Shown here in pieces: positions 1 to 43,875 of a DNA stretch of 64,000 nucleotides (position 1 is its first letter; each line of letters begins with the position of its first letter). Both the position numbers and the translations under genes were made by a program. The DNA lies in contig CAMFLR010000002.1 in the NCBI GenBank assembly GCA_945957605.1, positions 420,197-484,196 on the forward strand. The letters are read 5' to 3'. Origin of the DNA: an uncultured Isosphaeraceae bacterium (GTDB taxonomy: Bacteria > Planctomycetota > Planctomycetia > Isosphaerales > Isosphaeraceae). The notes under the pieces were generated by a model that saw only the letters and a list, made by a program, of their open reading frames with translations, ran no database searches and was not told where the DNA came from.

Positions 1-101
1 ATGCGTCGAAGTAAACCGATCATTTCCTGCTGATGCTCGGTCCTGCCTCTTTGAATTTTTGCGGTTCGATTTTCATTGAAGCGGCTTGCAATTTGATCGT
101 A

Positions 102-560
102 TCAGTTCAGCCAATAGTACAGCGTCTCCATTACCAAGAAATGCTTGCCAAATTGCTCAAGGACAAGGCGTGCTCCATCGCCCGCACAACCAAAGCCGGC
201 AGAGATCTCAACCGTATAACTCACGCCATTGACGGATATGATTTTGAGCACATGGCCGCCGAGTTCAAACGGAGCGACAATCTCCCAAAGCGGTGCGTTC
301 ATAAGGTCGTGGTCGCGCAGAAGTTCCGCAGCGGTAGGGTGATCAAGACGGCTCAGTGCGACGAGTATCGCGCGTACAACTGGTTCGGTATGGCTTCGAA
401 TCAAGCGCTCTGCGTAGCGTTTGTTCTTTTTCTCACGAAGTTCTCGAGGACCAAAATGTTTTGTCGCTAACGCTTCGAGTTCTTCTGAAACCGCTTCATC
501 CCATGCACGCCATTCTTCATCTGTCTCGGGCAATTTGCGATCTTCTTCGTTTTCATCCAT
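102..560 (-). CDS. hypothetical protein, acidic N-terminus
   Basis: A 152-residue protein of no family I recognise. The first 40 residues are very acidic (MDENEEDRKLPETDEEW...) and look helical; the second half is more beta-like and ends in YYWLN. There is no signal peptide or membrane segment, so it is probably cytosolic. The ATG is supported by a GAGG motif eight bases upstream, and the upstream DNA is AT-rich compared with the rest of the window, as expected for a promoter. It stands alone, pointing toward the left edge. The reading frame is more plausible than the overlapping plus-strand frames because of the ribosome site and the charged, low-cysteine composition. Confidence 0.6.
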   Translation of the reverse strand: MDENEEDRKLPETDEEWRAWDEAVSEELEALATKHFGPRELREKKNKRYAERLIRSHTEPVVRAILVALSRLDHPTAAELLRDHDLMNAPLWEIVAPFELGGHVLKIISVNGVSYTVEISAGFGCAGDGARLVLEQFGKHFLVMETLYYWLN

Positions 561-910
561 CGAATGCGCCTCGTCGATTATTCACTCGATCAATTTCAGT
601 ATATATATTACCAATATCTAATTCCGCTTGCATCGATCTAAGTTGGACATTCTAGATTAAGCATCCATTCCTTCCGGCGGGTGGCTGGGGCAGCATGCCC
701 CAGTTGGGAATGAGTGTCGATTTCACCGAGGACGAACGAGTCGCCGCTTCCCGCTGGATCGTATGTTACGATCGCCTTCAATTAACCTGGACGCGCACAC
801 GAGTTGACCTTCGCTACTATCGTTGATTTCCTTTCCGTCCCCTTGGCACTGGGGCATGCTGCCCCAGCCACCCTTCGTGATGATGAATATAGCTGGTGCA
901 CCTGAGCACA
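561..910. other. intergenic stretch holding a palindrome pair
   Basis: There is no convincing gene in these 350 bases. They hold the AT-rich upstream region of the gene ending at 102 (561-660) and two copies of a GC-rich palindrome in opposite orientation (679-704 and 848-873). The DNA between the palindromes shows nothing else. Confidence 0.6.
679..873. repeat. REP-like inverted palindrome pair
   Basis: A 26-base unit at 679-704 is repeated as its exact reverse complement at 848-873. Each unit contains CTGGGGCAGCATGCCCCAG, a perfect 8-base stem with a 3-base loop, so each copy can fold alone and the two can also pair with each other. This is the form of repetitive extragenic palindromes. 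The match was read directly from the sequence; whether the unit is dispersed in the genome cannot be seen here. Confidence 0.75.
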
Positions 911-27338: not shown

Positions 27339-30266
27339 TTAACCCTTGCGCGACTGCGCATGACGAACCGCAGCCGGTCCGCGAGGATGATTCGCGTGCT
27401 GCGCCGCCGGTTTCGAGATCGGCGGCGATGATTTGGCGAAAATCACGTGGTAATTCGTCCCAGGATGTCCCTTACCCGTGCCGTCGAGCCGTGTCCCTGC
27501 AAGGCTTTTCACGCCGTTGGGAGGCGTACCTTTCACAGTCAGCCGGTAGTTGTAGTGACTGTTGAGACGATGGGCGAGCGTCAACGTCACGGATTGCGCG
27601 GCGGCATCGTACTGAATCGAGCGAATGCCGATCGTGTGACCATGAAAATCGGTAATCAAGTAGTTACGGCGTCGCTGCGCACTCGCAACGTCGAGCGGTT
27701 GCGAGAAAACGAGTTGCACCATCGGCGTCGGGCCGACGAATCCAGACTGTTGCACGCTAACAACAGTCGGTGCCGCAAGTGAAAGAACTGTCTCGGTTAC
27801 GCTCGCCGTGCTCGAGGTAAACGAGAGATCGCCACTGTAAACGGCCGTGATGGTCTGTGTACCAACAGCGAGGGTGTCAGTCGTGTAAACGGCCTGACCG
27901 TTGACCAGAGGAATCGTCGCCAGCGGGATGTTGCCGTTGAGAAACGTGACACTTCCCGACGGCGCGCCCGGCAAACCAGGGGCTTGTGCCACGGTTGCCG
28001 TGAACGTCACGGGAGCGCCAGCGACCGAAGGATTTGGAGCTGCGTTCAGAGTCGTTGTCGTTTGAGTGGTCAGATCGAACTTGGTGACGAAGGCAAGAGT
28101 ATTGCCCGGAGGATTGGTTGTTTGTAGCGCGGCTGGAGTCGTCGGAAAATTGGTCGAGTTGGTGAGCCCAGTGACATAGAGGTGTCCCGCTGAATCGAGC
28201 GCGACACCACCGACCGAGTTGAGATCACCTTCGCCGCCCAGGTAAGTCGAGTAGTACAGGAACGAACCAGTCGAGTCGATTTTTGTTACAAACCCTAACT
28301 GAAGATCGCCCAACTGGTTGTCGAGTGCTCCGGCGATGACGGGAAAAGCAGTCGAAGTCGTGGTTCCAACGATGCCGACGGTTCCCCCCACATAAACGTT
28401 GCCCGATTGGTCGACCGCAAGGCCTGTCACCGCCGAATCACCGCTCCCCCCGAGAAAGGTTGAAAAGACCAATTGCGACCCTGAGGGATTGAGCTTGGAA
28501 ATGACTCCGTTCGACCCGGGATTCAAATTCTTGTTCGGGTTAAGGTTCACGCGTTGAAACGCGCCCGGCGTTGTCGGATAGTCGGCTTGTGGGACGGGCA
28601 CTCCGTTAACGACGGTGCTTCCGATGAAAGACGGAGAAGCCGAGCTGCCTCCAACGTAGACATTTCCAGACGCGTCGACTGCGATCGATCTGCCACTGTC
28701 ATACCCTTCGCCACCGATGAAGGTTGAAAACACCAGCGCAGAACCGGTCGAGTTGAACTCGGTCACGAAGACGTCAGATTTGCCGGAGAGCGTCGTCTGG
28801 TATGCTCCAACCGTCGTCGGGAAGATCGGCGACTGCGTAGAGCCCGTCACGTACGCTTCGCCGGTTGCATTGACAGCAATCGCAGTCGCAATCGTTGTGG
28901 AGTCTTTTGGACCACCGTCCAGCAGTGTGGAGTAAACCAACCCCGATCCTGCAGGATTGAACTTCGCGACAAACGCGGATGAGGACTGACCTCCGGTTGC
29001 CGAAGCAAACGCACCTGGAGTTGTTGGAAAATCAGCCGATGAGGTCGTGCCCGTGACATACGCGCTGCCGGCACCATCGAGTGCAATGCCGTAGCTTATA
29101 TCCTGCAGGCTACCCCCGAGAAAGGTCGAGTAAATCAGTTGCGAGCCGGTGGGATTCAGCTTGGTAACGAATATCGTCCCGTCGGTATTGGGAATGGTGG
29201 TCTGAAAGGCGCCAGGAGTCGTGGGGAAATTCGATGAATCGGTTTGACCTGTAATATAAGCGTTGCCCAGGTTGTCGACAGCAATGTCAGTTCCCGCATC
29301 AATAAAGCCGCTTCCTCCGAGATAAGTCGCGTAAACCAGAGCCGTGCCGGCCGCATTCAACTTCGCCACGAATGCATCGTTCACACCAACAAGGTTTGGC
29401 TGAAACGCGCCCGGCGTGGTTGGGAACGCTGCCGACGCAACATCACCGACGACGTAGGCATTGCCCGTAGCGTCGACCGTGATTTTGTTCCCTGAAACGC
29501 CGCCCGTCCCACCAAGGTATGTCGAATAATCCAGCGTCGGATCAATCACCAACGCCCGCGTCGTGTCATAAGCCCCAACCGCAAATCCAACCTGCCCGTC
29601 TGCCTCAATAACAAAATGCCCCGAAACCGACTCTCGCTGACCATTCGATGACACCTGATAAAGCACCGGCGCATGCTCGACCACGCTGCTGCCGTTGATC
29701 TGCAATACCAGATTTCCCTGCGAGTCGATCGAGGTCGATTGTGCCCCCTGGAATGACATGCGAATCGCATTGGGATCGGCACCAGGCGAAACGTTGAAGT
29801 CATACTCCAACTGCTGATGATTGCCGTAATAGGTCAGATCAATCCCAGGATAAACGCCCTGCTCTTCCACACGACCATAGTTGGCAATATTCGTCTGCCA
29901 CTTGCTGGGATCATTGCCGACGAAGTTGTTCGTCACGCTCGAAAGCTTGTCCAAGCCAACAATGTTCGAATTGGGGTTCGCTCCACCAAGGCTCATATAA
30001 AGCGCAGCATCCGAACCATTACCTGCAAGCGATAGAACCGTTGCACCCGGCGTGAAGAAGACCGTCCCATTCGTACCGCGCGCAAGAAACTTCACCTGAG
30101 CATCCGTCTGACCCTGATTCACCTCGAAACTGAGAGGAATTTGGCCAAACGCTTCAGCGGCAGTCGGAGTACCGCTGAGCAGATTTCGCGATTCAAGGAT
30201 GTCCAAAAACGCCGGCCTAAGAGATCCGCGGTAGTTCGAGCGACGATTCGTTCGGATACGCTTCAT
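27339..30266 (-). CDS. SBBP-repeat surface protein, copy 1
   Basis: A 975-residue protein. Residues 21-31 (LDILESRNLLS) are a degenerate LEPR-XLL motif, a planctomycete N-terminal tag of large exported proteins. A conserved domain (about 40-245: FGQIPLSFEVNQGQTDAQVKFLARG..., YPGIDLTYYGNHQQLEYDF) is followed by seven SBBP beta-propeller repeats (pattern YSTYLGG..D...A(I/V)D..GNAYVTG.T.S..FPTTPGAFQ), then an Ig-like domain (TFTATV..., TITAVYSGDLSFTSS) and a C-terminal beta domain. It is probably secreted or cell-wall bound; no enzyme motif. It lies 65 bases downstream of its paralogue, likely in one operon. Confidence 0.88.
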   Translation of the reverse strand: MKRIRTNRRSNYRGSLRPAFLDILESRNLLSGTPTAAEAFGQIPLSFEVNQGQTDAQVKFLARGTNGTVFFTPGATVLSLAGNGSDAALYMSLGGANPNSNIVGLDKLSSVTNNFVGNDPSKWQTNIANYGRVEEQGVYPGIDLTYYGNHQQLEYDFNVSPGADPNAIRMSFQGAQSTSIDSQGNLVLQINGSSVVEHAPVLYQVSSNGQRESVSGHFVIEADGQVGFAVGAYDTTRALVIDPTLDYSTYLGGTGGVSGNKITVDATGNAYVVGDVASAAFPTTPGAFQPNLVGVNDAFVAKLNAAGTALVYATYLGGSGFIDAGTDIAVDNLGNAYITGQTDSSNFPTTPGAFQTTIPNTDGTIFVTKLNPTGSQLIYSTFLGGSLQDISYGIALDGAGSAYVTGTTSSADFPTTPGAFASATGGQSSSAFVAKFNPAGSGLVYSTLLDGGPKDSTTIATAIAVNATGEAYVTGSTQSPIFPTTVGAYQTTLSGKSDVFVTEFNSTGSALVFSTFIGGEGYDSGRSIAVDASGNVYVGGSSASPSFIGSTVVNGVPVPQADYPTTPGAFQRVNLNPNKNLNPGSNGVISKLNPSGSQLVFSTFLGGSGDSAVTGLAVDQSGNVYVGGTVGIVGTTTSTAFPVIAGALDNQLGDLQLGFVTKIDSTGSFLYYSTYLGGEGDLNSVGGVALDSAGHLYVTGLTNSTNFPTTPAALQTTNPPGNTLAFVTKFDLTTQTTTTLNAAPNPSVAGAPVTFTATVAQAPGLPGAPSGSVTFLNGNIPLATIPLVNGQAVYTTDTLAVGTQTITAVYSGDLSFTSSTASVTETVLSLAAPTVVSVQQSGFVGPTPMVQLVFSQPLDVASAQRRRNYLITDFHGHTIGIRSIQYDAAAQSVTLTLAHRLNSHYNYRLTVKGTPPNGVKSLAGTRLDGTGKGHPGTNYHVIFAKSSPPISKPAAQHANHPRGPAAVRHAQSRKG
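29608..30044. repeat. 437-base perfect repeat, first copy
   Basis: This stretch is identical by eye, base for base, to 32442-32878. It encodes the conserved N-terminal domain of the two SBBP proteins. Flanking sequence on both sides differs at synonymous and non-synonymous sites. Confidence 0.85.
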
Positions 30267-30331: not shown

Positions 30332-33100
30332 TTAGCTTTTCCTCGACGAATGGCCGGCACGATGTGTGACCGGACCGCGAGGGTGATTCGCGTGCTGCGC
30401 CGCCAGTTTCGAGATTGGCGGCGAAGACTTGGCGAAAATCACGTGATAGTTCGTTCCGGGATGTCCCTTACCTGTGCCATCGAGGCGAGTCCCTGCAAGG
30501 CTTTTCACGCCGTTGGGAGGCGTCCCTTTCACAGTCAGCCGGTAGTTATAGTGACTGTTGAGACGATGCGCGAGCGTGAGAGTTATAGTCCGCGCGACCG
30601 CATCATACTGGATCGAGCGAATGCCGATCGTATGTCCATGAAAATCAGTGATGAGATAGTTACGGCGTCTTTGTGCGCTCACAATGTCGAGCGGCTGCGA
30701 GAAGGCCAGTTGCACCATCGGCGTCGGGCCGACGAATCCAGACTGTTGCACACTTTTGACTGCAGGGGCCGCCTGCGAGAGAACCGTTTGCTGCGCGCTG
30801 GCACTGCTTGTGGCGAAGGATAGATCACCGCTATAGACAGCCGTAATCGTTTGGTCACCGACGGCCAACGATGTGGTTGTGAAGGCGGCCTGGCCATTGA
30901 TAAGCGGCACCGTCCCCAACACGACATCACCGGTGCGGAACGTGATACTTCCCGTCGGCGTGCCCACCGCCCCGGCAATCTTTGTTACCGTAGCAGTAAA
31001 TGTGACGGGACTGCCGGCGATCGACGGATTTGGAACAACATCAAGGCTGGTCGTGGTTGAACTGGTCGTATCGATCTTGGTTACAAACGCGATCTGGCTG
31101 CCAGCCGGCAGTATCGTCTGAAGCGCGCCCGGTGTTGTCGGGAAATTGGCAGAACCCGTCTCGCCAGTCGCATACACATGCCCGCTGGAATCAACTGCCA
31201 CGTCCTGCACGCTATCGAAATGACCGTTGCCACCGAGATAGGTTGAATAGAGCAACAATGAACCGGTAGAGTCGAGCTTGGTGACGAACCCTCTTGGATT
31301 TGGCCCCAATTGAACGTTGATCGCCCCCGGCGTTGTCGGGAAGTCATTCGACTCTGTATAACCGCCGACGTACGCATTGCCCGCCGAATCGACTGCGATT
31401 CCTTCGCCGATGCCGTCACCGAAATGCGTCGAGTACACCAGTCGAGATCCCGTCGAATCAAGCTTCGTCACATACACGCCAGATCCGGTCACGTATGCAT
31501 TGCCAACGGAATCGATCGCGATGGCATTCGCATCAACAGCTCCCGCGTTGCCAAGAAGAGTCGAATAGACGAGGCCCGATCCTGTGGGGTTCAGCTTGGT
31601 TACGAAGCCGTCCGAGTTACCACTGAAAATTGTCTGAAACGCCCCCGGAGTCGTGGGGAATGACTTCGATAGAGTGTAACCGGCAACATACGCGTTACCC
31701 GTCGTATCGACAGCGATTCCTTGCCCGAGAGTCGTCGCGTTGAACGTGTTGCCGTCGAGGAACGTTGAATAGGACAGCGCCGAGCCGGCCGGATTCAGCT
31801 TGGCGACAAACGCCGCACTGCCGCTCCCCTTAGAAGGCTGAAACGCACCCGAGGTGGTTGGAAAATCGCTTGAATTCGCTAAGCCGGTAACATACGCGCT
31901 TCCTGACGAGTCGACCGCAATTCCGTAACCTCGGTCGTCTCCGCTTCCCCCTAAATATGTTGAATAAACCAGATGAGATCCATCTGCGCTGAGTTTCGTC
32001 ACGAAAGGACTCGAAACCGGAGCGTGATGCACCGTCTGAAACGCTCCTGGAGTTGTAGGAAAATCATCGGAAAAGGTTTGGCCGGTCACATAAGCGTTGC
32101 CCTGGTCGTCCACCGCAATCGCATTACAGAAATCCGCAGGACCGCTGCCACCGATGTAAGTTGCATAGACAAGCGCTGTTCCAGTGGGATTGAGCTTGGC
32201 GATGAACGTATGCGTCCCAGCGGCGATATTTGTTTGAAACGCTCCAGGAGTCGTTGGGAAAGTCGTCGATTCCGTGTTACCGGCTATATACGCATTGCCC
32301 TCTGCGTCGACCGCGATACTGCGTCCCGAACTTGTGCCGCTTCCACCAAGAAACGTCGAATAATCCAGTGTCGGATCAATCACCAAGGCCCGCGACGCAT
32401 CATAAGCCCCAACCGCAAACCCCACCTGCCCGTCAGCCTCGATAACAAAATGCCCCGAAACCGACTCTCGCTGACCATTCGATGACACCTGATAAAGCAC
32501 CGGCGCATGCTCGACCACGCTGCTGCCGTTGATCTGCAATACCAGATTTCCCTGCGAGTCGATCGAGGTCGATTGTGCCCCCTGGAATGACATGCGAATC
32601 GCATTGGGATCGGCACCAGGCGAAACGTTGAAGTCATACTCCAACTGCTGATGATTGCCGTAATAGGTCAGATCAATCCCAGGATAAACGCCCTGCTCTT
32701 CCACACGACCATAGTTGGCAATATTCGTCTGCCACTTGCTGGGATCATTGCCGACGAAGTTGTTCGTCACGCTCGAAAGCTTGTCCAAGCCAACAATGTT
32801 CGAATTGGGGTTCGCTCCACCAAGGCTCATATAAAGCGCAGCATCCGAACCATTACCTGCAAGCGATAGAACCGTTGCGCCCGGTGTGAAGAAAACCGTT
32901 CCATTCGCGCCGCGCGCAAGAAACTTCACCTGAGCATCCGTCTGGCCCTGGTTCACCTCGAAACTCAGCGGAATCTGACCAAACGCGTCGACTGCAGTCG
33001 GAGTACCGCTGAGCAAATTCCGCGGCTCAAGGATATCCAAAAACGCCAGCTTGAGAGACCCGCGGTGGTTCCAGCGACGATTCGTTCGGATACGCTTCAT
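30332..33100 (-). CDS. SBBP-repeat surface protein, copy 2
   Basis: A 922-residue paralogue of the protein at 27339-30266, upstream in the same direction. The tag is an exact LEPRNLL at residues 24-30. It has the same N-terminal domain, seven SBBP repeats with different sequence, the Ig-like domain and the same C-terminal domain (QSGFVGPTPMVQLAFSQPLD...). The frame is open to 33175, but MKRIRTNRR at 33100 matches the start of copy 1, and GGAATTATTGTC upstream resembles the copy 1 leader. The N- and C-terminal domains are nearly identical to copy 1, while the repeats have diverged. Confidence 0.88.
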   Translation of the reverse strand: MKRIRTNRRWNHRGSLKLAFLDILEPRNLLSGTPTAVDAFGQIPLSFEVNQGQTDAQVKFLARGANGTVFFTPGATVLSLAGNGSDAALYMSLGGANPNSNIVGLDKLSSVTNNFVGNDPSKWQTNIANYGRVEEQGVYPGIDLTYYGNHQQLEYDFNVSPGADPNAIRMSFQGAQSTSIDSQGNLVLQINGSSVVEHAPVLYQVSSNGQRESVSGHFVIEADGQVGFAVGAYDASRALVIDPTLDYSTFLGGSGTSSGRSIAVDAEGNAYIAGNTESTTFPTTPGAFQTNIAAGTHTFIAKLNPTGTALVYATYIGGSGPADFCNAIAVDDQGNAYVTGQTFSDDFPTTPGAFQTVHHAPVSSPFVTKLSADGSHLVYSTYLGGSGDDRGYGIAVDSSGSAYVTGLANSSDFPTTSGAFQPSKGSGSAAFVAKLNPAGSALSYSTFLDGNTFNATTLGQGIAVDTTGNAYVAGYTLSKSFPTTPGAFQTIFSGNSDGFVTKLNPTGSGLVYSTLLGNAGAVDANAIAIDSVGNAYVTGSGVYVTKLDSTGSRLVYSTHFGDGIGEGIAVDSAGNAYVGGYTESNDFPTTPGAINVQLGPNPRGFVTKLDSTGSLLLYSTYLGGNGHFDSVQDVAVDSSGHVYATGETGSANFPTTPGALQTILPAGSQIAFVTKIDTTSSTTTSLDVVPNPSIAGSPVTFTATVTKIAGAVGTPTGSITFRTGDVVLGTVPLINGQAAFTTTSLAVGDQTITAVYSGDLSFATSSASAQQTVLSQAAPAVKSVQQSGFVGPTPMVQLAFSQPLDIVSAQRRRNYLITDFHGHTIGIRSIQYDAVARTITLTLAHRLNSHYNYRLTVKGTPPNGVKSLAGTRLDGTGKGHPGTNYHVIFAKSSPPISKLAAQHANHPRGPVTHRAGHSSRKS
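32442..32878. repeat. 437-base perfect repeat, second copy
   Basis: This is the partner of 29608-30044, in the same orientation 2834 bases away. See that entry for the comparison. Confidence 0.85.
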
Positions 33101-33574
33101 GACAATAATTCCACAGATACCGGATAAGACCGGTACAACGCACGACGAACCCCAATTCTTGCCGACGCTGTTCACGACACCTCAAGCGATAAGCATAGCA
33201 TCGTGCAAATCAGAGTGAGCCGAACATCGGTGCAAGTCGTCGCCAAATGATCTGCCAAACCGGTACCGGCGAGACAATCGGCCGTCTTTCGCAGTAACAA
33301 AGACTCATACTCGCGATTCAACATAAAGTGACACGCTCATTTACTTAGCGCACTTACGACCGACGTGTTTAGATCAGCGCGATCCATGAATTCCTCAGCG
33401 TCCCAAACGTCCGATTGCGGCCCTGACGATTGCCACATATGCGACACCGTAGTTCTGGCCTCCCATTTTCTGAAGCTTGATGCTTTCTTACGCCGATTTT
33501 CCTTGACACTCATTTGCATGCAGGCAATGATGCAGCCAGATGTCTCCTTCCCCCTTAGTGCGGAGGCAGTTGCG
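33101..33574. other. divergent promoter region
   Basis: These 474 bases separate the SBBP operon (leftward) from the Hint-protein array (rightward). A strong plus-strand promoter is visible at 33503-33531. No further gene is supported; the open plus-strand frame that begins at 33365 lacks a ribosome site at its start. Confidence 0.6.
33503..33531 (+). promoter_or_regulatory. sigma-70-like promoter of the Hint array
   Basis: A perfect -35 TTGACA (33503-33508) is followed after 17 bases by AATGAT (33526-33531), four of six matches to the -10. The start of transcription would be near 33538, about 37 bases before the ATG at 33575. Confidence 0.55.
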
Positions 33575-35863
33575 ATGTTTGGTCTCACGTCGCTGATCGT
33601 CGCGGGTGTGCTGGCTGCTAATCCTGAGGAACCAGCCGCAGCCAATCTGAAACCTGCTCCAACAATCGCATCCGAGTATGAGTCGCGAAAGGCACAGACC
33701 AGCCGCGACGCCGATGCACAGATCAAACTCGCACTCTGGTGCGAACAGCACGGACTCGAGCAAGAGAGACTCAAACATCTCGGCGCCGTCGTACTGCGCG
33801 ACCCAACCAATGCCCTCGCCCGCGGCTTGCTGGGACTCGTCGAATACAAGGGAACTTGGAAACGCCCCGAAGCAGTCGCCGACGCGATCAAAACGGACGT
33901 TGCTCACGCCGATCTACTCGTCGAATACAACGCGCGACGAGTGAAAACGCCCGTCGCCGCGGGGCCGCAATATAAGCTTGGTCTTTGGTGCGAAGAGAAA
34001 GGATTAACCGACGAAGCCCGTGCTCACTTTGCGACCGCACTTCGGCTCGAGCCCACGAACGTCGACGCACTGAAGAAGCTTGGATATAAAAAAGTCGGTA
34101 ATCGCTGGACGACCGACGCTCAGGCTGAGCGTGAAAAGGCAGAAAAAGAAGTTCAATCCGAAGCTGACAAGAAGTGGAAAGCACAACTCGAACAGCTTCG
34201 AGCTCACCTGAAGGATCGAAACAAGCGTACCCAAGCCGAGAATGCTTTAGCCCAAATCTCAGATCCAAGAGCAGTGCCTTCGATCATGAGGGTCTTCGCG
34301 ACGTCGAGCGAACCTGATCAGCGGATCAGCGTACAGCTTCTAGGGCAAATCGACGCGATTGATAGTTCCAGAAACCTTGCGAAAATCGCACTTCTTTCCA
34401 ATTCTCCCGAAATACGTCGGCGAGCGACAGAGACACTGAAACGACGCGACGCACGCGAATGGGTTGATCTTGCAATTCGACTCTTGCAATCGAAAATCGT
34501 TTACAAAATCAAAGCTATCGGCGGCCCGAACGACCCTGGTGTGCTGGATATTCAAACTCCATCCGTCAAATACAAGCGGATCTATCGGCCTGGCGTTGCC
34601 TATCAACCACAGCCCGGTGATCGCGTGGGAACCGACGCAACTGGACAATTGATAGTTTCTCGAATGGGCGAGGTTCAGGAATCGGGCTGGGTTCGTCCCG
34701 ACGGCCTATTAGCAGGTATGGCTGCGTATGACGTGGGGCTTTCTAATGTCAACCCTTGGACAAATCCCCAAGATGCCTCGTTCATCGGCCAGTCGACAAT
34801 TGCTGCACTCTACGGCGCCATAAGATCAGGCCAGAACTCATCGGTCGTGGTTGGAGATCTTAACCGCGCACTTCAAAACACGCCATTCTTTGGCCAAGGC
34901 CAAGGGCTGGCAACTGCCTATCTCACAAACGCTCGAGTGGCGCAACAACTACCCTTTGAAATGGCATATCGAGCGAATACGCCAACTGTCGCTGGTTTGG
35001 TAAACCAATCCTTCGCTAGCCCCGCCGTACGTGGAGCAGGCGGTCAAATCGATTTCACTTATTCTCGGACCCAAAACCTATCTGTCGCCCAACTTCAGCG
35101 TGAAGCTCTTAATTCACAAGCCGCCGCTGCGGATCAGTTGAATGGAGACAAGTCGATCCTTGATCGAATGAACGAGGCAATCACACGAGCAAACGCTCCG
35201 TTGCTCGCGCTCTTGACGGCAGCAACTGGCCAATCATTTGGCGACGATCGAATCGCCTGGGAAAAGTGGTGTGCGCGCGTTACAGGCTATTCGATCACAA
35301 CGGCAACGGACTTGCCCACGGTCGTTGAAGATGTACCGGTCAACTACACCCCTCAACTCGTTGTGACAAGCGGTGCTCAGGTTTTTGGAGTTCTCAGCAA
35401 CTACCATAGTTGTTTCGGTAAAGGCACAATGGTTCAAACCTCATCCGGCCCGAAGCCGATCGAGGAGTTGAAATTGGGCGATATCGTTCTTAGCCAACAT
35501 CTCGCATCCGGAAAGTTGCGTTACCGTCCCGTAATTGCAGTGCATCACAACCCACCTGCTCCAACATACAAAGTCGAACTCGACGGCCAACCAATCATTT
35601 CCAGCCACATCCATCGATTCTGGAAAGCCGGATTTGGTTGGGTCATGGCACGCGACCTCAAGCAAGGCGACACGATTCGAGTCATTGGCGGAGTGGCTAA
35701 GGTGACCGCGATTGAAGACGCGCAGGTGCAGCACGTGTTCAACCTGACGGTAGCCGATGATGCGAATTTCTTCGTAGGAACGGCGTCGGCATTGGTTCAC
35801 GACGTCACGTTGCCCGACCTCAAGCTACTTCCCTTCGACGCGGTCGCCGCCCAAACGAAGTGA
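33575..35863 (+). CDS. TPR/HEAT protein with C-terminal Hint domain, copy A
   Basis: A 762-residue exported protein. A short hydrophobic signal-like start (MFGLTSLIVAGVLAAN) precedes TPR-like repeats (about 35-185: ADAQIKLALWCEQHGLEQERLKHL, QYKLGLWCEEKGLTDEARAHF), a HEAT-like segment (about 225-310), a variable middle and a Hint domain from Cys613 (CFGKGTMVQTSSGPKPIEELKLGDIVLSQ) with HRFWKAGFGWVMARDL and NFFVGTASALVHD. Hint domains cut or splice at their first Cys. Exactly 150 residues run from this Cys to the end. The chosen ATG has GGAGG eight bases upstream, as in copies B and C. The role is unknown. Confidence 0.85.
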   Translation: MFGLTSLIVAGVLAANPEEPAAANLKPAPTIASEYESRKAQTSRDADAQIKLALWCEQHGLEQERLKHLGAVVLRDPTNALARGLLGLVEYKGTWKRPEAVADAIKTDVAHADLLVEYNARRVKTPVAAGPQYKLGLWCEEKGLTDEARAHFATALRLEPTNVDALKKLGYKKVGNRWTTDAQAEREKAEKEVQSEADKKWKAQLEQLRAHLKDRNKRTQAENALAQISDPRAVPSIMRVFATSSEPDQRISVQLLGQIDAIDSSRNLAKIALLSNSPEIRRRATETLKRRDAREWVDLAIRLLQSKIVYKIKAIGGPNDPGVLDIQTPSVKYKRIYRPGVAYQPQPGDRVGTDATGQLIVSRMGEVQESGWVRPDGLLAGMAAYDVGLSNVNPWTNPQDASFIGQSTIAALYGAIRSGQNSSVVVGDLNRALQNTPFFGQGQGLATAYLTNARVAQQLPFEMAYRANTPTVAGLVNQSFASPAVRGAGGQIDFTYSRTQNLSVAQLQREALNSQAAAADQLNGDKSILDRMNEAITRANAPLLALLTAATGQSFGDDRIAWEKWCARVTGYSITTATDLPTVVEDVPVNYTPQLVVTSGAQVFGVLSNYHSCFGKGTMVQTSSGPKPIEELKLGDIVLSQHLASGKLRYRPVIAVHHNPPAPTYKVELDGQPIISSHIHRFWKAGFGWVMARDLKQGDTIRVIGGVAKVTAIEDAQVQHVFNLTVADDANFFVGTASALVHDVTLPDLKLLPFDAVAAQTK
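33650..34053. repeat. 404-base perfect repeat, copy A
   Basis: This stretch is identical by eye to 38527-38930 in copy C. The same region of the middle gene, copy B, differs at many synonymous positions. It encodes the TPR-like part of the protein. Confidence 0.85.
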
Positions 35864-36008
35864 CATGCTCATAGCGTTGGACGGCCCGGCTTCAGTCAAG
35901 TGGTCAATTCGATGCGGCTGAGTTTCCTCTTTTTTCGAGAAACTTAGCCGTAGGCACTCCAAGCTTTACACGAGCATCCTCTTCCGGCGTTACGTGGAGG
36001 CGTTTTCG

Positions 36009-38306
36009 ATGTTTTGTCTCACGTCGCTGATCGTCGCGAGTGTGCTGGCTGCTAATCCCGAGGAACCAGCCGCAGCCAATCTGAAACCCGCTCCAACAAT
36101 CGCATCCGAGTATGAGTCGCGAAAGGCACAGACCGGCCGCGACGCCGATGCCCAGATCAAACTCGCACTCTGGTGCGAACAGCACGGACTCGAGCAAGAG
36201 AGACTCAAACATCTCGGCGCCGTCGTACTCCGCGACCCAACCAATGCCCTCGCACGCGGCTTGCTTGGGCTCGTCGAATACAAGGGAACCTGGAAACGCC
36301 CCGAAGCAGTCGCCGACGCGATCAAGACCGACGTCGCTCACGCCGATTTGCTCGTCGAATACAACGCGCGACGAGTGAAAACGCCCGTCGCCGCCGGACC
36401 GCAATACAAGCTTGGCCTTTGGTGCGAAGAGAAAGGATTAACCGATGAAGCTCGCGCTCACTTCGCGACCGCGCTCCGGCTCGAGCCCACGAACGTCGAC
36501 TCGCTGAAGAAGCTTGGATATAAGAAAGTCGGTAATCGTTGGATCACCGAGAGGCAAGCCGCGTTCGAAAAAGCGGAACGCGAGGCGCAAACGGCGGCCG
36601 ATCGTGAATGGAAGCCGCGTTTCGAGGCTTTGCACTCGCAGTTTAAGAGTAAGACGAAGCGAGCCGACGCCGAGAGGATGCTCGCCGAGATCAGCCATGT
36701 CCGCGCTGTGCCGATGTTGTTGAAAACTTTTGTGGGCGGAGACGTCGACCAGCAGCAAATGACCGTTCAAGTGTTGGGACAAATTGATGCGATCGAATCA
36801 TCGCGTGCCTTGGCAAAATATGCGATGTTTGCCGAATCGGCCGACATTCGCGCCCGCGCCACCGCCACGCTGCGTCGTCGCGACCCTCGCGAATGGGCCG
36901 ATCTACCGCTCGTTCTTCTGCGTTCCAGGATCAATTACAAGATGAAACCTGTCGGCGGTCCGACCGACCCAGGTTTTCTTGAAATCACCACAAAAACGAC
37001 AAACTACAAGAGAATCTATCGCCCCGGCGCCGCATATCAAATTCAACCCGGCGATCGGATCTTTACCGACGCGTCAGGTCAACAAATCGTATCTCGTCTC
37101 AATGGAATCTTTGAGACAGGTCAGGCAAATATCATCTCCTCGGCAAGTTGGCAAGGAGCACGTGATACAGCAAATGCGTTAGGTTTGCCACCTGGGATCG
37201 GTCCCAACATCGTCTATGCCTACGCCACTCAGAATGCACTTGTGTTGGACCAGCCAGTGATCTTGGGGCCAAACGCCAACGCCGTGACGGGACAACTCAA
37301 TCACGCGTTGCAAGGCTCATCTTTCGCCGGCCAGGGCGAGCGTCTGGCCAGTGCAGCCGTTGCCACGGAGCAGAACTTCCAACGCAATCTTCTCACCTAT
37401 TCCGTGCTTGGGCCGGAAATGGCTGCCAAGCAATGGGTGCAGCGCGGCGCCAATTCGTACGGCTTCTTAGGTTCGAATGGGCTCCTTTTTGAGGTCGCAA
37501 GCACAACCAACGTGCCCCTGGCCCAACTTCAGCGCGACGCACTAAACTCGCAGTCGGCCGCGGTCGACAGCCTCAACGCGGATAAGTCTCTTCTGGATGA
37601 TTACAACCGGAACGTTTCCAAGACGAATTCGCGTTCGCTAGACCTTCTAACAACCACAACAGGACTTGCGTTCGGCGACGATCGCGAAGCTTGGGATAAG
37701 TGGTTCACCACGCAAATCGGATATGCGTACGTAACACCCCAGCAAGCGCCGACGGTTGTGGAAGAGGTCCCAACAACGTTTCAATCTCAAGTCACAGCGA
37801 CAGCCAGCCTCGACATGCTCAACGCCAGAATTCCCCCTCCTCCAAGCCACAATTGTTTTGGAAAAGGAACTCTCGTAAGGACACCATCGGGTGCACGAGC
37901 GATCGAAGATCTCAAGATCGGCGATCTCGTGTTAAGCCAGGAAATGGCCTCGGGCAAGCTTCATTACAAGCCAATTGTCGCAGTTCATCATAACCCTCCG
38001 AGCCCGACCCATAAAATCATGCTCAATGGCGAGGCTCTCGTCTCGAGCCACTTCCACCGCTTCTGGAAAGTTGGCCAAGGATGGGTCATGGCGCGTGATC
38101 TCAAGGTTGACGACAAGATCCGCGTTCTCGGAAGCGTCGCCACAATTTCGTCGATCGAGCCGTCTCCCGTTCAGCCCGTATTCAATCTGAACGTCGCCGA
38201 TGACTCGAATTTCTTCGTCGGCTCAATCGCGGCATTGGTCTACGACGCGAGCATCCCCGATCTCAAACTCGTTCCGTTCGACGCAGTCGCCACCCAGACG
38301 AAATGA
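36009..38306 (+). CDS. TPR/HEAT protein with C-terminal Hint domain, copy B
   Basis: A 765-residue paralogue of copy A, 145 bases downstream. The N-terminal signal-like stretch, TPR-like repeats and HEAT-like segment (AVPMLLKTFVGGDVDQQQMTVQVLGQIDAIESSRALAKY) are shared; the middle third (about 350-500) is different. The Hint domain starts at Cys616 (CFGKGTLVRTPSGARAIEDLKIGDLVLSQEMASGKLHYKP) and again has 150 residues to the end, including FHRFWKVGQGWVMARDL and the tail SIPDLKLVPFDAVATQTK. A GTG at 35994 lies in the ribosome-site region, so the ATG at 36009 is preferred. Confidence 0.85.
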   Translation: MFCLTSLIVASVLAANPEEPAAANLKPAPTIASEYESRKAQTGRDADAQIKLALWCEQHGLEQERLKHLGAVVLRDPTNALARGLLGLVEYKGTWKRPEAVADAIKTDVAHADLLVEYNARRVKTPVAAGPQYKLGLWCEEKGLTDEARAHFATALRLEPTNVDSLKKLGYKKVGNRWITERQAAFEKAEREAQTAADREWKPRFEALHSQFKSKTKRADAERMLAEISHVRAVPMLLKTFVGGDVDQQQMTVQVLGQIDAIESSRALAKYAMFAESADIRARATATLRRRDPREWADLPLVLLRSRINYKMKPVGGPTDPGFLEITTKTTNYKRIYRPGAAYQIQPGDRIFTDASGQQIVSRLNGIFETGQANIISSASWQGARDTANALGLPPGIGPNIVYAYATQNALVLDQPVILGPNANAVTGQLNHALQGSSFAGQGERLASAAVATEQNFQRNLLTYSVLGPEMAAKQWVQRGANSYGFLGSNGLLFEVASTTNVPLAQLQRDALNSQSAAVDSLNADKSLLDDYNRNVSKTNSRSLDLLTTTTGLAFGDDREAWDKWFTTQIGYAYVTPQQAPTVVEEVPTTFQSQVTATASLDMLNARIPPPPSHNCFGKGTLVRTPSGARAIEDLKIGDLVLSQEMASGKLHYKPIVAVHHNPPSPTHKIMLNGEALVSSHFHRFWKVGQGWVMARDLKVDDKIRVLGSVATISSIEPSPVQPVFNLNVADDSNFFVGSIAALVYDASIPDLKLVPFDAVATQTK

Positions 38307-38451
38307 CGCGTCCGCACCGTTGGATGGCTCGGCTTCAGTCCAGTCATCACCAAGACGCAACCAAGAATTCTCGACCTCAAGAAGTTCAGCCGCAGACATC
38401 CCAAAAAGTTCACGAGCGTTCCTCTTCCGGCGTTACGTGGAGGCGTTTGCA

Positions 38452-40701
38452 ATGCTTGGTCTCGCGCCACTCGTTATTGCGGGCTTGCTCGTCGCGACTC
38501 CTGATGAACCCGCGATCGCAAACCTAAAACCTGCTCCAACAATCGCATCCGAGTATGAGTCGCGAAAGGCACAGACCAGCCGCGACGCCGATGCACAGAT
38601 CAAACTCGCACTCTGGTGCGAACAGCACGGACTCGAGCAAGAGAGACTCAAACATCTCGGCGCCGTCGTACTGCGCGACCCAACCAATGCCCTCGCCCGC
38701 GGCTTGCTGGGACTCGTCGAATACAAGGGAACTTGGAAACGCCCCGAAGCAGTCGCCGACGCGATCAAAACGGACGTTGCTCACGCCGATCTACTCGTCG
38801 AATACAACGCGCGACGAGTGAAAACGCCCGTCGCCGCGGGGCCGCAATATAAGCTTGGTCTTTGGTGCGAAGAGAAAGGATTAACCGACGAAGCCCGTGC
38901 TCACTTTGCGACCGCACTTCGGCTCGAGCCTACGAACGCCGAGGCATTAAAGAAGCTCGGATATAAGAAAGTCGGTAATCGTTGGATCACTGAGAGGCAG
39001 GCTGCGTTCGAAAAAGCTGAGCGTGAGACGCAAATCGCGGCAGATCGCGAATGGAGGCCAAGATTCGAGACGCTTCGAGATCAGTTGAAAAGCAAGGCCA
39101 AGCGTGCCGACGCAGAGAAGGCTCTCGCTGAGATCAGCCATGTCCGCGCAGTGCCGATGCTGCTGAAAACGTTCGCTGGTGGAGATTTCAACCACCAGCG
39201 CATTGCCCTGCAGGTGCTGGGCCAAATCGATGCGATCGAATCTTCTCGTGCACTTGCCCGTTTCGCTCTGCTGGCTGAATCGGATGACATCCGCGCTCGC
39301 GCGATCGACACGCTTCGCCGACGAGATCCACGCGAATGGGCCGATCTTCCTATCACCTTGCTACGCTCCAAAATCGTTTACACCATGAAGCCTGTTGGCG
39401 GTCCCGATGATCCGGGCATTCTCGATATCAAAACCAAAACAGGCAATTACAAGCGGATTTATCGTCCTGGTGTTGCCTACCAACCGCAGCCGGGCGACCG
39501 GATTGTTGCCGGTCCCAACGGTGAACCCGTGGTATCGCGAATCGCGGAAGTCGTCACAACGCCCTTGATGCCAGCATCCCAGCTAGCCCGTGCTCTGGGC
39601 GGTTACGAGGCGGGGCTAACCTCAGTTTCTCCTTTTGACAACGCTTACCTGTCATCGGTAGCGGCGAACCAAGCGTTAGACCAATCTACCACTCCTGGAC
39701 CCAACACTAACCGAGCGATAGGGAACCTCAACCATGCGCTCCAAGGAACAAGCTTGGCCGGACAGGGCGCGTATCTTGCAACGACAGAGTTGAACGCGGC
39801 TCGAGCGTACCAACGAAACCTCGAACTCTTTTATGAGCAAAGCTTGCCGCAGAGGCTCGGCACGTTCGCGTTCAAACCCGATACTTATCTGACGATCACG
39901 GCGGGCAAAACCATTAACGTCCCGCTCGCACAACTTCAACGCGACGCAATCAATTCGCAAAACGCGTCGATCGATCAGTTAAACGGCGATAAGGGCATTC
40001 TTGATGACGCCAACAGCAAAATCGCTCGGGACAACATACGTTCGATTGCTCTCTTGACTGCGGGAACTGGCAAAACGCTAGGCGACGATAGAGAAGCATG
40101 GGAAAAATGGCTTTCGAACCAGATAGGTTACGCATACACGACTCCCGACCAAACCCCGACCATTGTTGAAGAAGTTCCCATAAATTACACGCCGCAGGCA
40201 GTCGCCACACCTGGCTTACAAGCGCTTAGCTTCTCGCGCATCAGTTGCTTCGGCAAAGGCACGCCGGTCCAAACACCATCGGGCACGCGGCCAATCGAAG
40301 ACCTCAAAGTCGGCGACCTCGTCCTCAGTCAGGAAATGGCCACCGGTAAGCTCCGCTACAAGCCAGTCACCGTCCTCCACCACAACCTGCCAAGTCCAAC
40401 CTACAAGGTCGTGCTCAACGGTGATTCCATCATCTCCAGCTATTTCCACCGCTTCTGGAAAGTCGGCCAGGGGTGGGTGATGGCGCGTGACCTCAAAGTC
40501 GGCGATACGCTTCGAGTGCTCGGAAGCGTCACCAGCGTGACCGCGATTGAATCGGCACCAGTGCAACCGGTCTTTAACCTCGACGTCGCCGACGATGCCG
40601 ATTTCTTCGTTGGCTCGATCGGCGCACTTGTGCATGACAATTCGCTGCCCAACCTCAAACTCGTTCCGTTCGATCGCGTCGCCGAAAAAACGAGCAAGTA
40701 A
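38452..40701 (+). CDS. TPR/HEAT protein with C-terminal Hint domain, copy C
   Basis: A 749-residue paralogue, again 145 bases after the previous copy. Its TPR coding region is identical to that of copy A over 404 bases, while its HEAT-like part resembles copy B. The Hint domain starts at Cys599 (CFGKGTPVQTPSGTRPIEDLKVGDLVLSQEMATGKLRYKP) and ends ALVHDNSLPNLKLVPFDRVAEKTSK, one residue longer than the others. The frame is open from 38200, overlapping copy B, but the ATG at 38452 has GGAGG and matches the starts of A and B. Confidence 0.85.
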   Translation: MLGLAPLVIAGLLVATPDEPAIANLKPAPTIASEYESRKAQTSRDADAQIKLALWCEQHGLEQERLKHLGAVVLRDPTNALARGLLGLVEYKGTWKRPEAVADAIKTDVAHADLLVEYNARRVKTPVAAGPQYKLGLWCEEKGLTDEARAHFATALRLEPTNAEALKKLGYKKVGNRWITERQAAFEKAERETQIAADREWRPRFETLRDQLKSKAKRADAEKALAEISHVRAVPMLLKTFAGGDFNHQRIALQVLGQIDAIESSRALARFALLAESDDIRARAIDTLRRRDPREWADLPITLLRSKIVYTMKPVGGPDDPGILDIKTKTGNYKRIYRPGVAYQPQPGDRIVAGPNGEPVVSRIAEVVTTPLMPASQLARALGGYEAGLTSVSPFDNAYLSSVAANQALDQSTTPGPNTNRAIGNLNHALQGTSLAGQGAYLATTELNAARAYQRNLELFYEQSLPQRLGTFAFKPDTYLTITAGKTINVPLAQLQRDAINSQNASIDQLNGDKGILDDANSKIARDNIRSIALLTAGTGKTLGDDREAWEKWLSNQIGYAYTTPDQTPTIVEEVPINYTPQAVATPGLQALSFSRISCFGKGTPVQTPSGTRPIEDLKVGDLVLSQEMATGKLRYKPVTVLHHNLPSPTYKVVLNGDSIISSYFHRFWKVGQGWVMARDLKVGDTLRVLGSVTSVTAIESAPVQPVFNLDVADDADFFVGSIGALVHDNSLPNLKLVPFDRVAEKTSK
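38527..38930. repeat. 404-base perfect repeat, copy C
   Basis: This is the partner of 33650-34053, in the same orientation 4877 bases away. Confidence 0.85.
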
Positions 40702-40715
40702 CCAACCCCTAAACG

Positions 40716-40751
40716 GCTGACGGCCATCACCTTCCCTAAATTGCCGTCAGC
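40716..40751. terminator. hairpin between convergent genes
   Basis: A perfect nine-base stem GCTGACGGC / GCCGTCAGC with an 18-base loop, in the 45-base gap after copy C and reaching into the stop of the convergent HEAT gene. It has no U tract, so it is a probable bidirectional transcription stop only. Confidence 0.5.
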
Positions 40752-43700
40752 TTGTTGCAACCTGTTCCTCTTCGATTTGTGCAATCACCCCTTGCGCTGT
40801 CTTGCGTACGCGAGCATCCGGATCTTCCAACGCTCGTGTCAGCACGGCACGCGCCTCGGCGTTTTCTGGTTCACTCGCAAGTAACGCCTCGGCCGCGATC
40901 AGCGACACGCGCGAATTTGGGTCGGCAAGCAAGCGCCGCATCAAGTCGGTCACGGGCTTTCCCGTTTCCTCAACGAGTGCGAGCGCAGAATTCATTCGCA
41001 AACCGTCGGAGGGATCGCTGGCACATTCAATCAGCAGCGGCACTGCGGAGGCGGGCAGTGTTTCGACTCTTGCAAGCGCGTGCGACGCGTTGGCTCGCAC
41101 CTGCACTTCCGGATCGCGAAGCGCGTCGATGAGCGTCGGAATCGCTTCTTCGGGAATCACTTCGGCTTTCATCCAACCCGCCGAGGCAATCTTCCGCACA
41201 TCGCCGCTCGGGTCTTTCAGGCCGCTCACAAACGCCGGCGTTGCCTCCTCGGGTTGAATCAATACAAGTGCACGCATCGCTTGCTCGCGAACGGTTACAT
41301 CACCCGTTCGCGCTGCTTCCAGCAACACCGGGCCAGCGGCAGTCGCTTCTGTGCCCAGTCGTCCCAACGCTCGCGCGGCGTGCACTTGCACCCACGTGCT
41401 CACATCTTCGCGCAATCGCCGGCACAACGCTTCAATCACATCGTCCGTCGCACCCGCCAGATGCGGCAATACCTCGGCGACTCGCGCTTTCACCTCTTCG
41501 TTAGGATCGTCAAGCTTGGTCAAAAGCGCCGAGACAATTGCATCGCTCGACTTCTCCCAGTTTCCAAGCGTTTCCACAGCGGCCACTCGCACGAAGGAGT
41601 CAGAATCGTCGAGCGCTTCGAGCACAATTCGCAACGAGCTATTATCGGCCGGGCCAATCAATCCCAGCGCCCGGATCACCTGGCTTCGAACCCCGGCGTC
41701 CTCGTCGCTGCTCCTCCGTTCGAGCGCGATTCGAGCCATTTTCGCTGCCTCGCCCATGCGTCCAAGCGCCTCAGCCGAATTGGCGCGAACCCATGAATTC
41801 ACATGCCCAAGCGATTGAACCAACGCTTCAATCGTATGCTCGCTCGATTCGCCCATTTGCCCAAGCGCCTCGGCGGCCAGTGCGCTCACCCAGTTGTCGC
41901 GATCGCGCAACGCACGCAACAATCCGGGCACAGCAGCCGGTGCGGCCGCCTCACCGATCATACCAAGCGCCTGCACAGCCTTCGCACGCACACGATCGTT
42001 GTCGTCGTCAATCGCTTCAACAAGCGCGGGTGCGGCCTCGCCAACCGGCGCACCAATCGCGCCCAAAGCTTCGGCCGTGCGAGCACGGACCACGGTATCT
42101 TCACTTTCCAATCCTTCGACGAGCGACTCGATCGCTTCTTCATCAAGCGGCCCAAGTCGTGCGAGCGTTGCTGCCGCGGCTTCACGCACAGCCTCATCGC
42201 GATCTTGCAAGAGACGCACGATCGTAGGAACCGCTGGAGCGGCCGCTTCTCCCATCTCGCCCAGCGTCTGGATCGCCGTCGTTTTGACGATGGGTGAAGC
42301 GTCCTCGAGCAAGCGCGTCACTGCTTCCACGACCACGTCGGGATCGCCACCAAGCTTGCCCAGCGCTTCGGCCGCACGACAGCGTACGAGATCATCGGCC
42401 TCATTGAGCAGGCCGATCAGCGAAGGAGCCACGCGAGCTGCCGCAGGGCCGATGACACCGACCGCCACGGCTGCAGCAGCGCGGACTGCTGGAATTGAAT
42501 CGGCGAGAGCCTTTTCGAGCGTCGCCACAGACGCCTGCACGGGATCGACGAAGCGCACGTGCCGGAATTTCTCTTGCTTTTGGAGCCATTTCACAGCCTT
42601 GCGAAGCCGCGGATGCACGCGTTTTCTCTTGCGAAGCCACGCGACAGCCAACTGAATCCGCGAACGCCTGCCTAGCGGAAGTCCTCGTGTTTCATTGGGA
42701 AATTCCACGGCCGCAGCACCGATGCTTCCGAGCGCCTCGGCCACATTCTGGCGGATCATGTCGCTGGGATCCTTTGCCATCGCAACGAGAAGCGGTGTGG
42801 CGTCCTGCACTCGCAGTAGACCAAGGGCCGCAACTGCAATCGCCCTCACGTGCTCGTGCGGATCGTTAAGGTGTCGCAAGAGCGTGGGCGTAACGCTTGG
42901 TCCAACCGTCGCCAGCACGACCGGAAGCTCATCACGCAGTTCTTTTGTGAGTGACGAGAAAGCTCGTAGCGAGGAAAGCAAGGGACGGATCGCCATCACA
43001 CCATATTGCGGCAAGGCGTCGCGAGCGCGGTCGTGAATCGGCTCGTGCGGACTCCAGAAGTCGTTGATCGTCTCGCCCAGATTTCGGCGTTGCCGTAGCG
43101 ACGACGAGATCTGCTGCACGAGCACGACGGTGAAAAACGTCTTGAACGCAACCAACATCGCGGTGGCAGGCCATTTCACCGGCCTGACGTCAAGCTCCCC
43201 CACAAGGTGGTGCGAGCGAGCGACATCAAGCACGTCGAGCAACCCAAGCAGTTTGACGATCGCGTAAACCAGGAAATCAACATAAATCGGCCCGTCGGAT
43301 TTCTCCGCGATTTCGTACCAACTCGACCCACCCGACTCGAACACTCCTTGATTCAGCAACGCAAAACCACCGACCGTCGCAGCGCTCGCCGTGATGAGGT
43401 AAGGAACGTGAAGCAGATCGCCATAGAGCGCCAGATGCCGCGCGATTGCCTGCCCCTTGAGCGGTTTGAATACCGCCTTGTGTCCTCGCTTCACCTCCGA
43501 ACGCTCGGAGTCAACATACATATAAGCGAAACATGCGACGACGCCGATAAACAAAAGCGCCAGCCCGCAAAGCACGCGAACGACTGGAATCCATCGGCCG
43601 AGGATCAATCCCCCGAACCACAATCCGGCGGACATGCCAAGCACGGCCGTCCAGGGCGCCCAGGAAAGGCTCCTTTCCCAGAGCAAGAAGCCATTGCGGA

Positions 43701-43875
43701 TCGTCCGGCGGATAAGAGTGCTCGCCGCCTGGAGCAACCAGCTAATAAAACCGACGCGAAACAGGATCGCAGCAATCAGCCCGACCAACCCCAGCACAAC
43801 CAAAAGGAAATACGACGTATCAAATTCTTCGAGCTTCGCCGTCCATTCCGATAGCCCCATTGATCGATGCCCCAC
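40747..43875 (-). CDS. large membrane HEAT-repeat protein
   Basis: A 1042-residue protein. The first 270 residues hold about six hydrophobic helices (YFLLVVLGLVGLIAAILF, AVLGMSAGLWFGGLILG, VLCGLALLFIGVVACFAYMYV, others). The rest, about 290-1035, is an unbroken solenoid of more than twenty HEAT/PBS-lyase-like repeats of 31 residues (VRAIAVAALGLLR..., VRCRAAEALGKLG, VREAAAATLARLG). Such solenoids bind protein partners. The role is unknown; it should sit in the inner membrane with the solenoid on one face. It converges on the Hint array and is not cotranscribed with it. A second ATG five codons in is possible. Confidence 0.85.
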   Translation of the reverse strand: MGHRSMGLSEWTAKLEEFDTSYFLLVVLGLVGLIAAILFRVGFISWLLQAASTLIRRTIRNGFLLWERSLSWAPWTAVLGMSAGLWFGGLILGRWIPVVRVLCGLALLFIGVVACFAYMYVDSERSEVKRGHKAVFKPLKGQAIARHLALYGDLLHVPYLITASAATVGGFALLNQGVFESGGSSWYEIAEKSDGPIYVDFLVYAIVKLLGLLDVLDVARSHHLVGELDVRPVKWPATAMLVAFKTFFTVVLVQQISSSLRQRRNLGETINDFWSPHEPIHDRARDALPQYGVMAIRPLLSSLRAFSSLTKELRDELPVVLATVGPSVTPTLLRHLNDPHEHVRAIAVAALGLLRVQDATPLLVAMAKDPSDMIRQNVAEALGSIGAAAVEFPNETRGLPLGRRSRIQLAVAWLRKRKRVHPRLRKAVKWLQKQEKFRHVRFVDPVQASVATLEKALADSIPAVRAAAAVAVGVIGPAAARVAPSLIGLLNEADDLVRCRAAEALGKLGGDPDVVVEAVTRLLEDASPIVKTTAIQTLGEMGEAAAPAVPTIVRLLQDRDEAVREAAAATLARLGPLDEEAIESLVEGLESEDTVVRARTAEALGAIGAPVGEAAPALVEAIDDDNDRVRAKAVQALGMIGEAAAPAAVPGLLRALRDRDNWVSALAAEALGQMGESSEHTIEALVQSLGHVNSWVRANSAEALGRMGEAAKMARIALERRSSDEDAGVRSQVIRALGLIGPADNSSLRIVLEALDDSDSFVRVAAVETLGNWEKSSDAIVSALLTKLDDPNEEVKARVAEVLPHLAGATDDVIEALCRRLREDVSTWVQVHAARALGRLGTEATAAGPVLLEAARTGDVTVREQAMRALVLIQPEEATPAFVSGLKDPSGDVRKIASAGWMKAEVIPEEAIPTLIDALRDPEVQVRANASHALARVETLPASAVPLLIECASDPSDGLRMNSALALVEETGKPVTDLMRRLLADPNSRVSLIAAEALLASEPENAEARAVLTRALEDPDARVRKTAQGVIAQIEEEQVATS

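What the first reader, a model, noticed from the sequence alone, without database searches (positions are those of the whole stretch)
33575..40701. Three tandem TPR/HEAT proteins ending in Hint domains
Three exported paralogues lie head to tail with identical 145-base spacers. Each has a Hint domain beginning at a Cys 150 or 151 residues from the end, and each ends with a conserved 18-20 residue tail (S/T-L/I-P-D/N-LKL-V/L-PFD) that is better conserved than the middle of the protein. In polymorphic toxin systems a toxin follows the Hint domain; here only a short constant tail follows, and the last block reads VHD or VYD instead of the usual VHN. This suggests a self-cleaving protein that releases or anchors the TPR/HEAT part, a system I do not recognise as described.
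Basis: partly seen in the sequence, partly recalled or inferred. Interest (0 to 1): 0.75.

Follow-up and report, generated by a model that had tools for sequence, protein, structure and literature searches.

The report
Planctomycete self-cleaving-type proteins lacking toxins
Three neighbouring genes encode probably exported planctomycete proteins that end in a protein-cutting 'Hint' domain normally used by bacteria to release a toxin, but here the residue that would cut off the toxin has been replaced and no toxin follows, so the domain most likely cuts (or chemically tags) the front part of its own protein instead.

Summary
Three head-to-tail genes (33575-35863, 36009-38306, 38452-40701, +) with 145-bp spacers encode TPR-HEAT proteins ending in a genuine Hint domain. 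PF07591 matches at E 1e-13 to 1e-16. An AlphaFold model superposes on inteins and the C. thermocellum BIL domain (Z 20-21), with Cys613 at intein residue 1 and Asp743 at the terminal Asn.

They belong to a planctomycete family (36 of 45 Isosphaerales genomes, 1-9 genes each, often tandem; scattered in Pirellulales-type planctomycetes). Cys1 is 70/70, block-B His 69/70 and terminal Asp 69/69. Across 137 related Hint domains the last residue separates two kinds: 99 end in Asp, with only a 14-93-residue tail; 38 end in Asn, 37 of them with a downstream domain of at least 79 residues. The tail is locked in register (Asp-x9-P-[FY]-D), as if part of the Hint fold.

Best reading, inferred and not shown: a Hint kept for N-terminal thioester cleavage but disabled for Asn-driven C-terminal cleavage. 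It would release the TPR/HEAT/variable part or transfer it to a nucleophile, as Hedgehog's Hog domain does. This is a new variant of a known kind. No paper in the library describes it. Cleavage itself is untested.

The parts
33575..35863 (+). Gene 1: TPR-HEAT-variable-Hint protein, 762 aa
   Evidence: ORF with GGAGG upstream; Pfam; AlphaFold model
33653..34483 (+). Gene 1 TPR and HEAT-like helical repeats (aa 27-303)
33650..34053 (+). 404-bp tract identical to 38527-38930 in gene 3 (recent gene conversion or exchange)
   Evidence: identity falls to 50-65% beyond it
34682..35056 (+). Gene 1 hypervariable middle (aa 370-494), low model confidence; nearly absent in the Adhaeretor homologue
   Evidence: 16% mean pairwise identity
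35300..35410 (+). Gene 1 linker just before Cys1 (aa 576-612), disordered at 594-610
   Evidence: pLDDT 35-42 at 591-610
35411..35803 (+). Gene 1 Hint domain, Cys613 to terminal Asp743
35804..35860 (+). Gene 1 C-terminal tail, 19 aa, VTLPDLKLLPFDAVAAQTK
35864..36008 (+). 145-bp spacer 1, with GGAGG before gene 2
36009..38306 (+). Gene 2: same architecture, 765 aa
37854..38246 (+). Gene 2 Hint domain, Cys616 to Asp746 (block G reads VYD)
38247..38303 (+). Gene 2 tail, 19 aa
38307..38451 (+). 145-bp spacer 2, with GGAGG before gene 3
38452..40701 (+). Gene 3: same architecture, 749 aa
40246..40638 (+). Gene 3 Hint domain, Cys599 to Asp729 (VHD followed by NS)
40639..40698 (+). Gene 3 tail, 20 aa

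Best explanation
A planctomycete family of probably exported TPR-HEAT proteins whose C-terminal Hint domain is retained for the N-terminal half-reaction only. Cys1, helped by the block-B [ST]xxH, moves the preceding peptide bond onto its thiol through the flexible linker. The resulting thioester is resolved by water or another nucleophile, so the TPR-HEAT-variable part is separated from the Hint. The C-terminal Asn that frees a toxin in polymorphic-toxin Hints is replaced by an invariant Asp, so the tail normally stays on the Hint, where it packs in a fixed register. Shown here: the fold, residue equivalences, conservation and the Asp/Asn split. Inferred: that cleavage occurs, what resolves the thioester, and what the freed part does.
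For: The Hint fold matches inteins and BIL at Z 20-21, with 613 at intein residue 1 and 743 at its last residue; the Adhaeretor homologue gives the same register, 433..563. Cys1 is 70/70, block-B His 69/70, [ST] 66/70 and block-F Asn 69/70, across members down to about 22-28% full-length identity, so catalysis appears selected. The last residue is Asp in 69/69. 99 Asp-ended Hints all carry a tail of 93 aa or less; 37 of 38 Asn-ended Hints carry 79 aa or more (the latter corrected by eye for four rows). A disordered linker precedes Cys1 in both models. Tail: P-[FY]-D starts 10 residues after Asp in 51 of 55 and 11 in 4; tail pLDDT is 87 then 77. Literature: Hog uses only the N-S shift (PMC7664689); B-type BILs cleave without splicing (PMC4031507).
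Against: No cleavage data. Asp can replace Asn in some active inteins (PMC4031507), so C-terminal cleavage is not excluded. The Asp+1 residue is Asn in 50 of 69 and Asp+2 is Ser/Thr in 57 of 69, which resembles an intein C-junction shifted by one. The Asp/short-tail link may be a single evolutionary event: one clade is not rejected (p-AU 0.26) but not shown. Atypical N-termini leave export uncertain.
Confidence: 0.55

Rival explanations
1. Splicing or double cleavage: Asp743, or the Asn usually at Asp+1, also breaks the C-terminal junction, so the Hint leaves and the TPR-HEAT part is joined to, or released from, the 14-50-residue tail, as in A-type BIL domains.
For: Inteins ending in Asp can splice (PMC4031507); HDN[ST] is common; the tail is conserved.
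Against: Asn at Asp+1 is missing in about a quarter of members and in two of the three window copies; Gly stands at Asp+2 in 8 members; the fixed Asp-to-PFD spacing and tail pLDDT suggest the tail belongs to the Hint fold.
Confidence: 0.15
2. Hog-like conjugation: the thioester is resolved by a specific small molecule or cell-surface amine or alcohol, anchoring the TPR-HEAT part covalently; Asp743 acts as the base that activates the nucleophile and the tail as an adduct-recognition element.
For: Same layout as Hog proteins (N-domain, Hint, short C-terminal element); Hint superposes on Hedgehog Hint at Z 18.2; an invariant Asp lies where the intein Asn lies near Cys1.
Against: BIL and inteins are structurally closer than Hog; no adduct is known; the tail is far shorter than the Hog sterol-recognition region.
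Confidence: 0.15
3. The Hint is a non-catalytic structural module, for example for binding or multimerisation.
For: The terminal Asn is lost in the whole family; no activity is shown.
Against: Cys1, [ST]xxH and block-F Asn stay nearly invariant while other regions diverge.
Confidence: 0.1
4. A polymorphic toxin system in which the toxin was lost, or in which the hypervariable middle is the toxin.
For: PF07591 is the pretoxin HINT family; tandem paralogues with gene conversion and a variable segment.
Against: No toxin or immunity domain was found by Pfam, NCBIfam, PADLOC or PHROGs scans; no recurrent partner gene; the Asp-ended state is conserved across planctomycetes.
Confidence: 0.05

Closest known systems
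Bacterial intein-like (BIL) domains, A and B type (C. thermocellum BIL, 2LWY)
   Same: Best sequence match (E 3e-29) and Z 21.1 fold match; Cys1, block B and block F alike
   Different: A type ends in His-Asn; here the Asn is always Asp. B type lacks block G; here block G is recognisable
Pretoxin HINT (PF07591) of polymorphic toxins
   Same: All three score above the family cut-off; secreted multi-domain context
   Different: No toxin domain after the Hint; Asp replaces the Asn that frees the toxin; no immunity gene recognised
Hedgehog/Hog autoprocessing proteins
   Same: Hint at the C-terminus of a probably exported protein, followed only by a short element; fold Z 18.2 to 1AT0
   Different: No Hedge domain; tail of about 14-50 aa instead of a sterol-recognition region; adduct unknown
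Bacterial proteins with a C-terminal Hint-like domain (Myxococcus, Photorhabdus and others) noted in PMC2362128
   Same: Hint-like domain at the end of probably secreted bacterial proteins
   Different: That group is described as divergent from BIL, with two conserved upstream cysteines; not compared directly here

Membership tests
PT-HINT (PF07591) | Score above Pfam's gathering cut-off | tested here: met
   58.8, 56.6 and 50.4 bits against 27.7
Polymorphic toxin system | Toxin domain C-terminal to the Hint | tested here: not met
   19-20 aa tails here; 14-93 aa in 99 relatives
Polymorphic toxin system | Adjacent immunity gene | tested here: inconclusive
   No recurrent neighbour family beyond general planctomycete genes; individual neighbours were not exhaustively annotated
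Hint superfamily | Hint fold with N-terminal Cys and block B [ST]xxH | tested here: met
BIL type A | C-terminal His-Asn | tested here: not met
   Asp in 69/69 family members
BIL type B | No similarity to intein block G | tested here: not met
   Block G recognisable as [VAS]HD at canonical spacing
Intein (class 1) | Terminal Asn and Cys/Ser/Thr at +1 | tested here: not met
   Asp, then mostly Asn at +1
Hedgehog/Hog | Only the N-S acyl shift is used, with transfer to an adduct | not testable with these tools
   Needs biochemistry
Hedgehog/Hog | Hedge domain | tested here: not met
   N-part gives TPR and HEAT matches only

The most novel reading that the evidence does not exclude
Planctomycetes carry a bacterial Hog-like system: a large, tandemly amplified family of exported proteins in which an Asp-ended Hint covalently attaches the C-terminus of a TPR-HEAT-variable domain to a lipid or cell-surface nucleophile, with the conserved tail recognising the adduct.
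Probability: 0.15. Interest if true: 0.85.

Novelty: new variant of a known kind. Interest (0 to 1): 0.55.

Why it matters
Hint domains in bacteria are mostly read as toxin-release or splicing modules. Here an expanded gene family keeps the first half of the chemistry, has replaced the residue needed for the second, and has nothing to release at the C-terminus. If confirmed it gives a bacterial counterpart of Hog-type, N-terminal-only autoprocessing, a sequence rule (terminal Asp versus Asn) that predicts which junction a Hint cuts, and a new way for planctomycetes to process or anchor exported proteins. The rule is directly testable with two point changes. It also warns against annotating such proteins as polymorphic toxins.

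Tried and rejected
Looked for a toxin, defence or phage assignment: none in NCBIfam above cut-off, PADLOC or named PHROGs. Looked for a conserved partner gene in 16-kb neighbourhoods: only general genes recur in a few loci. Tried to settle single origin of Asp-ended Hints: trees place three Asn-ended rows (L100 twice, L132) beside the Isosphaerales clade on long branches, and one clade is neither rejected nor shown. Considered the Asn after Asp as the true intein terminus: rejected as the general rule because it is variable whereas Asp is invariant and sits at the intein-Asn position in fold alignments. A lookup of Singulisphaera by accession failed. Automatic calls of the last Hint residue misread four rows (L057, L076, L084, L091), corrected by eye. 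Literature searches for planctomycete Hint or PT-HINT proteins found nothing specific.

Full report
What is there. Three genes of 762, 765 and 749 codons lie head to tail on the + strand at 33575-35863, 36009-38306 and 38452-40701, with two 145-bp spacers of related but not identical sequence and a GGAGG before each start. All three score above the Pfam cut-off for PT-HINT at their C-terminus, and weakly for TPR and HEAT repeats in the first 300 residues.

Family. The host is an Isosphaeraceae planctomycete: named relatives include Singulisphaera, Paludisphaera, Tautonia and Aquisphaera. The window's genome has eight such genes in four places, and every TPR-HEAT part of this type there carries a Hint. 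In the order, 36 of 45 genomes have 1-9 Hint copies at E <= 1e-25; of 120 places checked, 49 lie in tandem arrays of 2-4, in 18 of 34 genomes. More distant members with the same TPR-HEAT-Hint layout occur in Lacipirellulaceae, Pirellulaceae, Planctomycetaceae and Gemmataceae records.

Fold. AlphaFold2 on gene 1 with 70 family sequences gives mean pLDDT 82.6. It shows helical repeats to about residue 303, a beta segment (309-369), a low-confidence middle (about 370-499), a helical bundle (504-570), a disordered stretch (594-610), and the Hint at pLDDT about 90 or more. Foldseek's first hit is the C. thermocellum BIL domain 2LWY (E 1e-8, TM on target 0.90). VIA-align gives Z 21.1 to 2LWY (rmsd 1.5, 134 aligned), 20-21 to several inteins and 18.2 to Hedgehog 1AT0; for Mtu RecA intein the aligned range is 613..743 to 1..440, so Cys613 falls on the first and Asp743 on the terminal intein residue. 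The Adhaeretor mobilis homologue, at 25% identity, gives the same picture (433..563, Z 19.5 to 2LWY). The sequence profile also matches 2LWY first, E 3e-29, up to its penultimate His.

Residues. Over 70 full-length members Cys1 is invariant, block-B His 69/70, Thr or Ser 66/70 and block-F Asn 69/70; the terminal position is Asp in 69 of 69 readable members. The next residue is Asn in 50 and the one after is Ser or Thr in 57. I corrected four rows of the automatic table by eye (L057, L076, L084 and L091 all read Asp). Then 99 Hint domains end in Asp and none has more than 93 residues after it (98 have 52 or fewer); 38 end in Asn, and 37 have 79 or more. The one Asn exception is L141 (VHNKMRKK). 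Two family members, L117 and L118, have Gly instead of Asp. This contrast may reflect a single origin: a constrained one-clade tree is not rejected (p-AU 0.26), but neither is it shown.

Tail. The first 14 tail residues average 46% pairwise identity in Isosphaerales, against 55% for the Hint and 16% for the middle. P-[FY]-D begins exactly 10 residues after the Asp in 51 of 55 members, 11 in four; in the other planctomycetes a PG motif begins 12 residues after it in 11 of 11 that have it. Model confidence over the tail is 87 then 77. I infer that the tail is an extension of the Hint rather than a flexible cargo.

Diversification. Genes 1 and 3 share an exact 404-bp tract in the TPR region, flanked by 50-75% identity: recent gene conversion or exchange. 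The middle segment is hypervariable in Isosphaerales and almost absent in the Adhaeretor homologue. A conserved scaffold thus carries a variable insert; what it binds is unknown.

Mechanism. In inteins and BIL domains Cys1 drives N-terminal thioester formation and the terminal Asn drives C-terminal cleavage; Hog uses only the first step, and B-type BILs cleave without splicing (PMC7664689, PMC4031507). In this family selection has kept the first set of residues and excluded Asn. The simplest reading is N-terminal autocleavage that frees the TPR-HEAT-variable part, with the Hint and tail left together. Whether water or a specific acceptor takes the thioester cannot be told from sequence. Because Asp-ended inteins can splice, double cleavage or splicing remains a rival.

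Comparison. It belongs to the Hint superfamily and scores as PT-HINT, but fails the defining features of polymorphic toxins (no C-terminal toxin), A-type BILs (no His-Asn), B-type BILs (block G is recognisable) and class 1 inteins (no Asn, no +1 nucleophile as a rule). It works most like a B-type BIL or a Hog domain, without being shown to be either. C-type BILs of predatory bacteria are mentioned in PMC9185962 but were not compared. The review of polymorphic toxins places HINT before a toxin (PMC3482391). I found no paper on this planctomycete family.

Noticed in passing
window 27339-30266 (-) and 30332-33175 (-): Two adjacent repeat proteins with an LESRNLLSG/LEPRNLLSG N-terminal motif share about 450 bp that is 99-100% identical near the 5' end, while the middle is mostly about 57-62% identical: the same mosaic pattern as the Hint genes.
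   Followed up: partly
window 40747-43875 (-): A 1042-aa protein made of HEAT-like repeats, read from its translation, is convergent with the third Hint gene.
   Followed up: no
window 33650-34053 and 38527-38930: Exact 404-bp identity between genes 1 and 3, which points to recent gene conversion.
   Followed up: yes
L117:52-1971, L118:1450-3384: Two family members have Gly in place of the terminal Asp (ILTHGLGERRPTDMVYPG): natural variants for testing the role of the Asp.
   Followed up: no
L105: A Clostridia contig carries several Hint-bearing ORFs with repeated sequence, ending in HN with 92-115 residues after it.
   Followed up: no
L100, L132: Asn-ended, toxin-length Hint proteins (Acidobacteria MAG and one same-phylum genome) branch beside the Isosphaerales Asp-ended clade on long branches.
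   Followed up: partly
L141:1492-2313: A 274-aa protein ends VHNKMRKK: an Asn-ended Hint with no downstream domain, the one exception to the Asn-with-toxin rule.
   Followed up: no
L080, aa 331-345: The hypervariable insert of Isosphaerales (about 125 aa in gene 1) is reduced to about 15 aa in the Adhaeretor homologue.
   Followed up: partly
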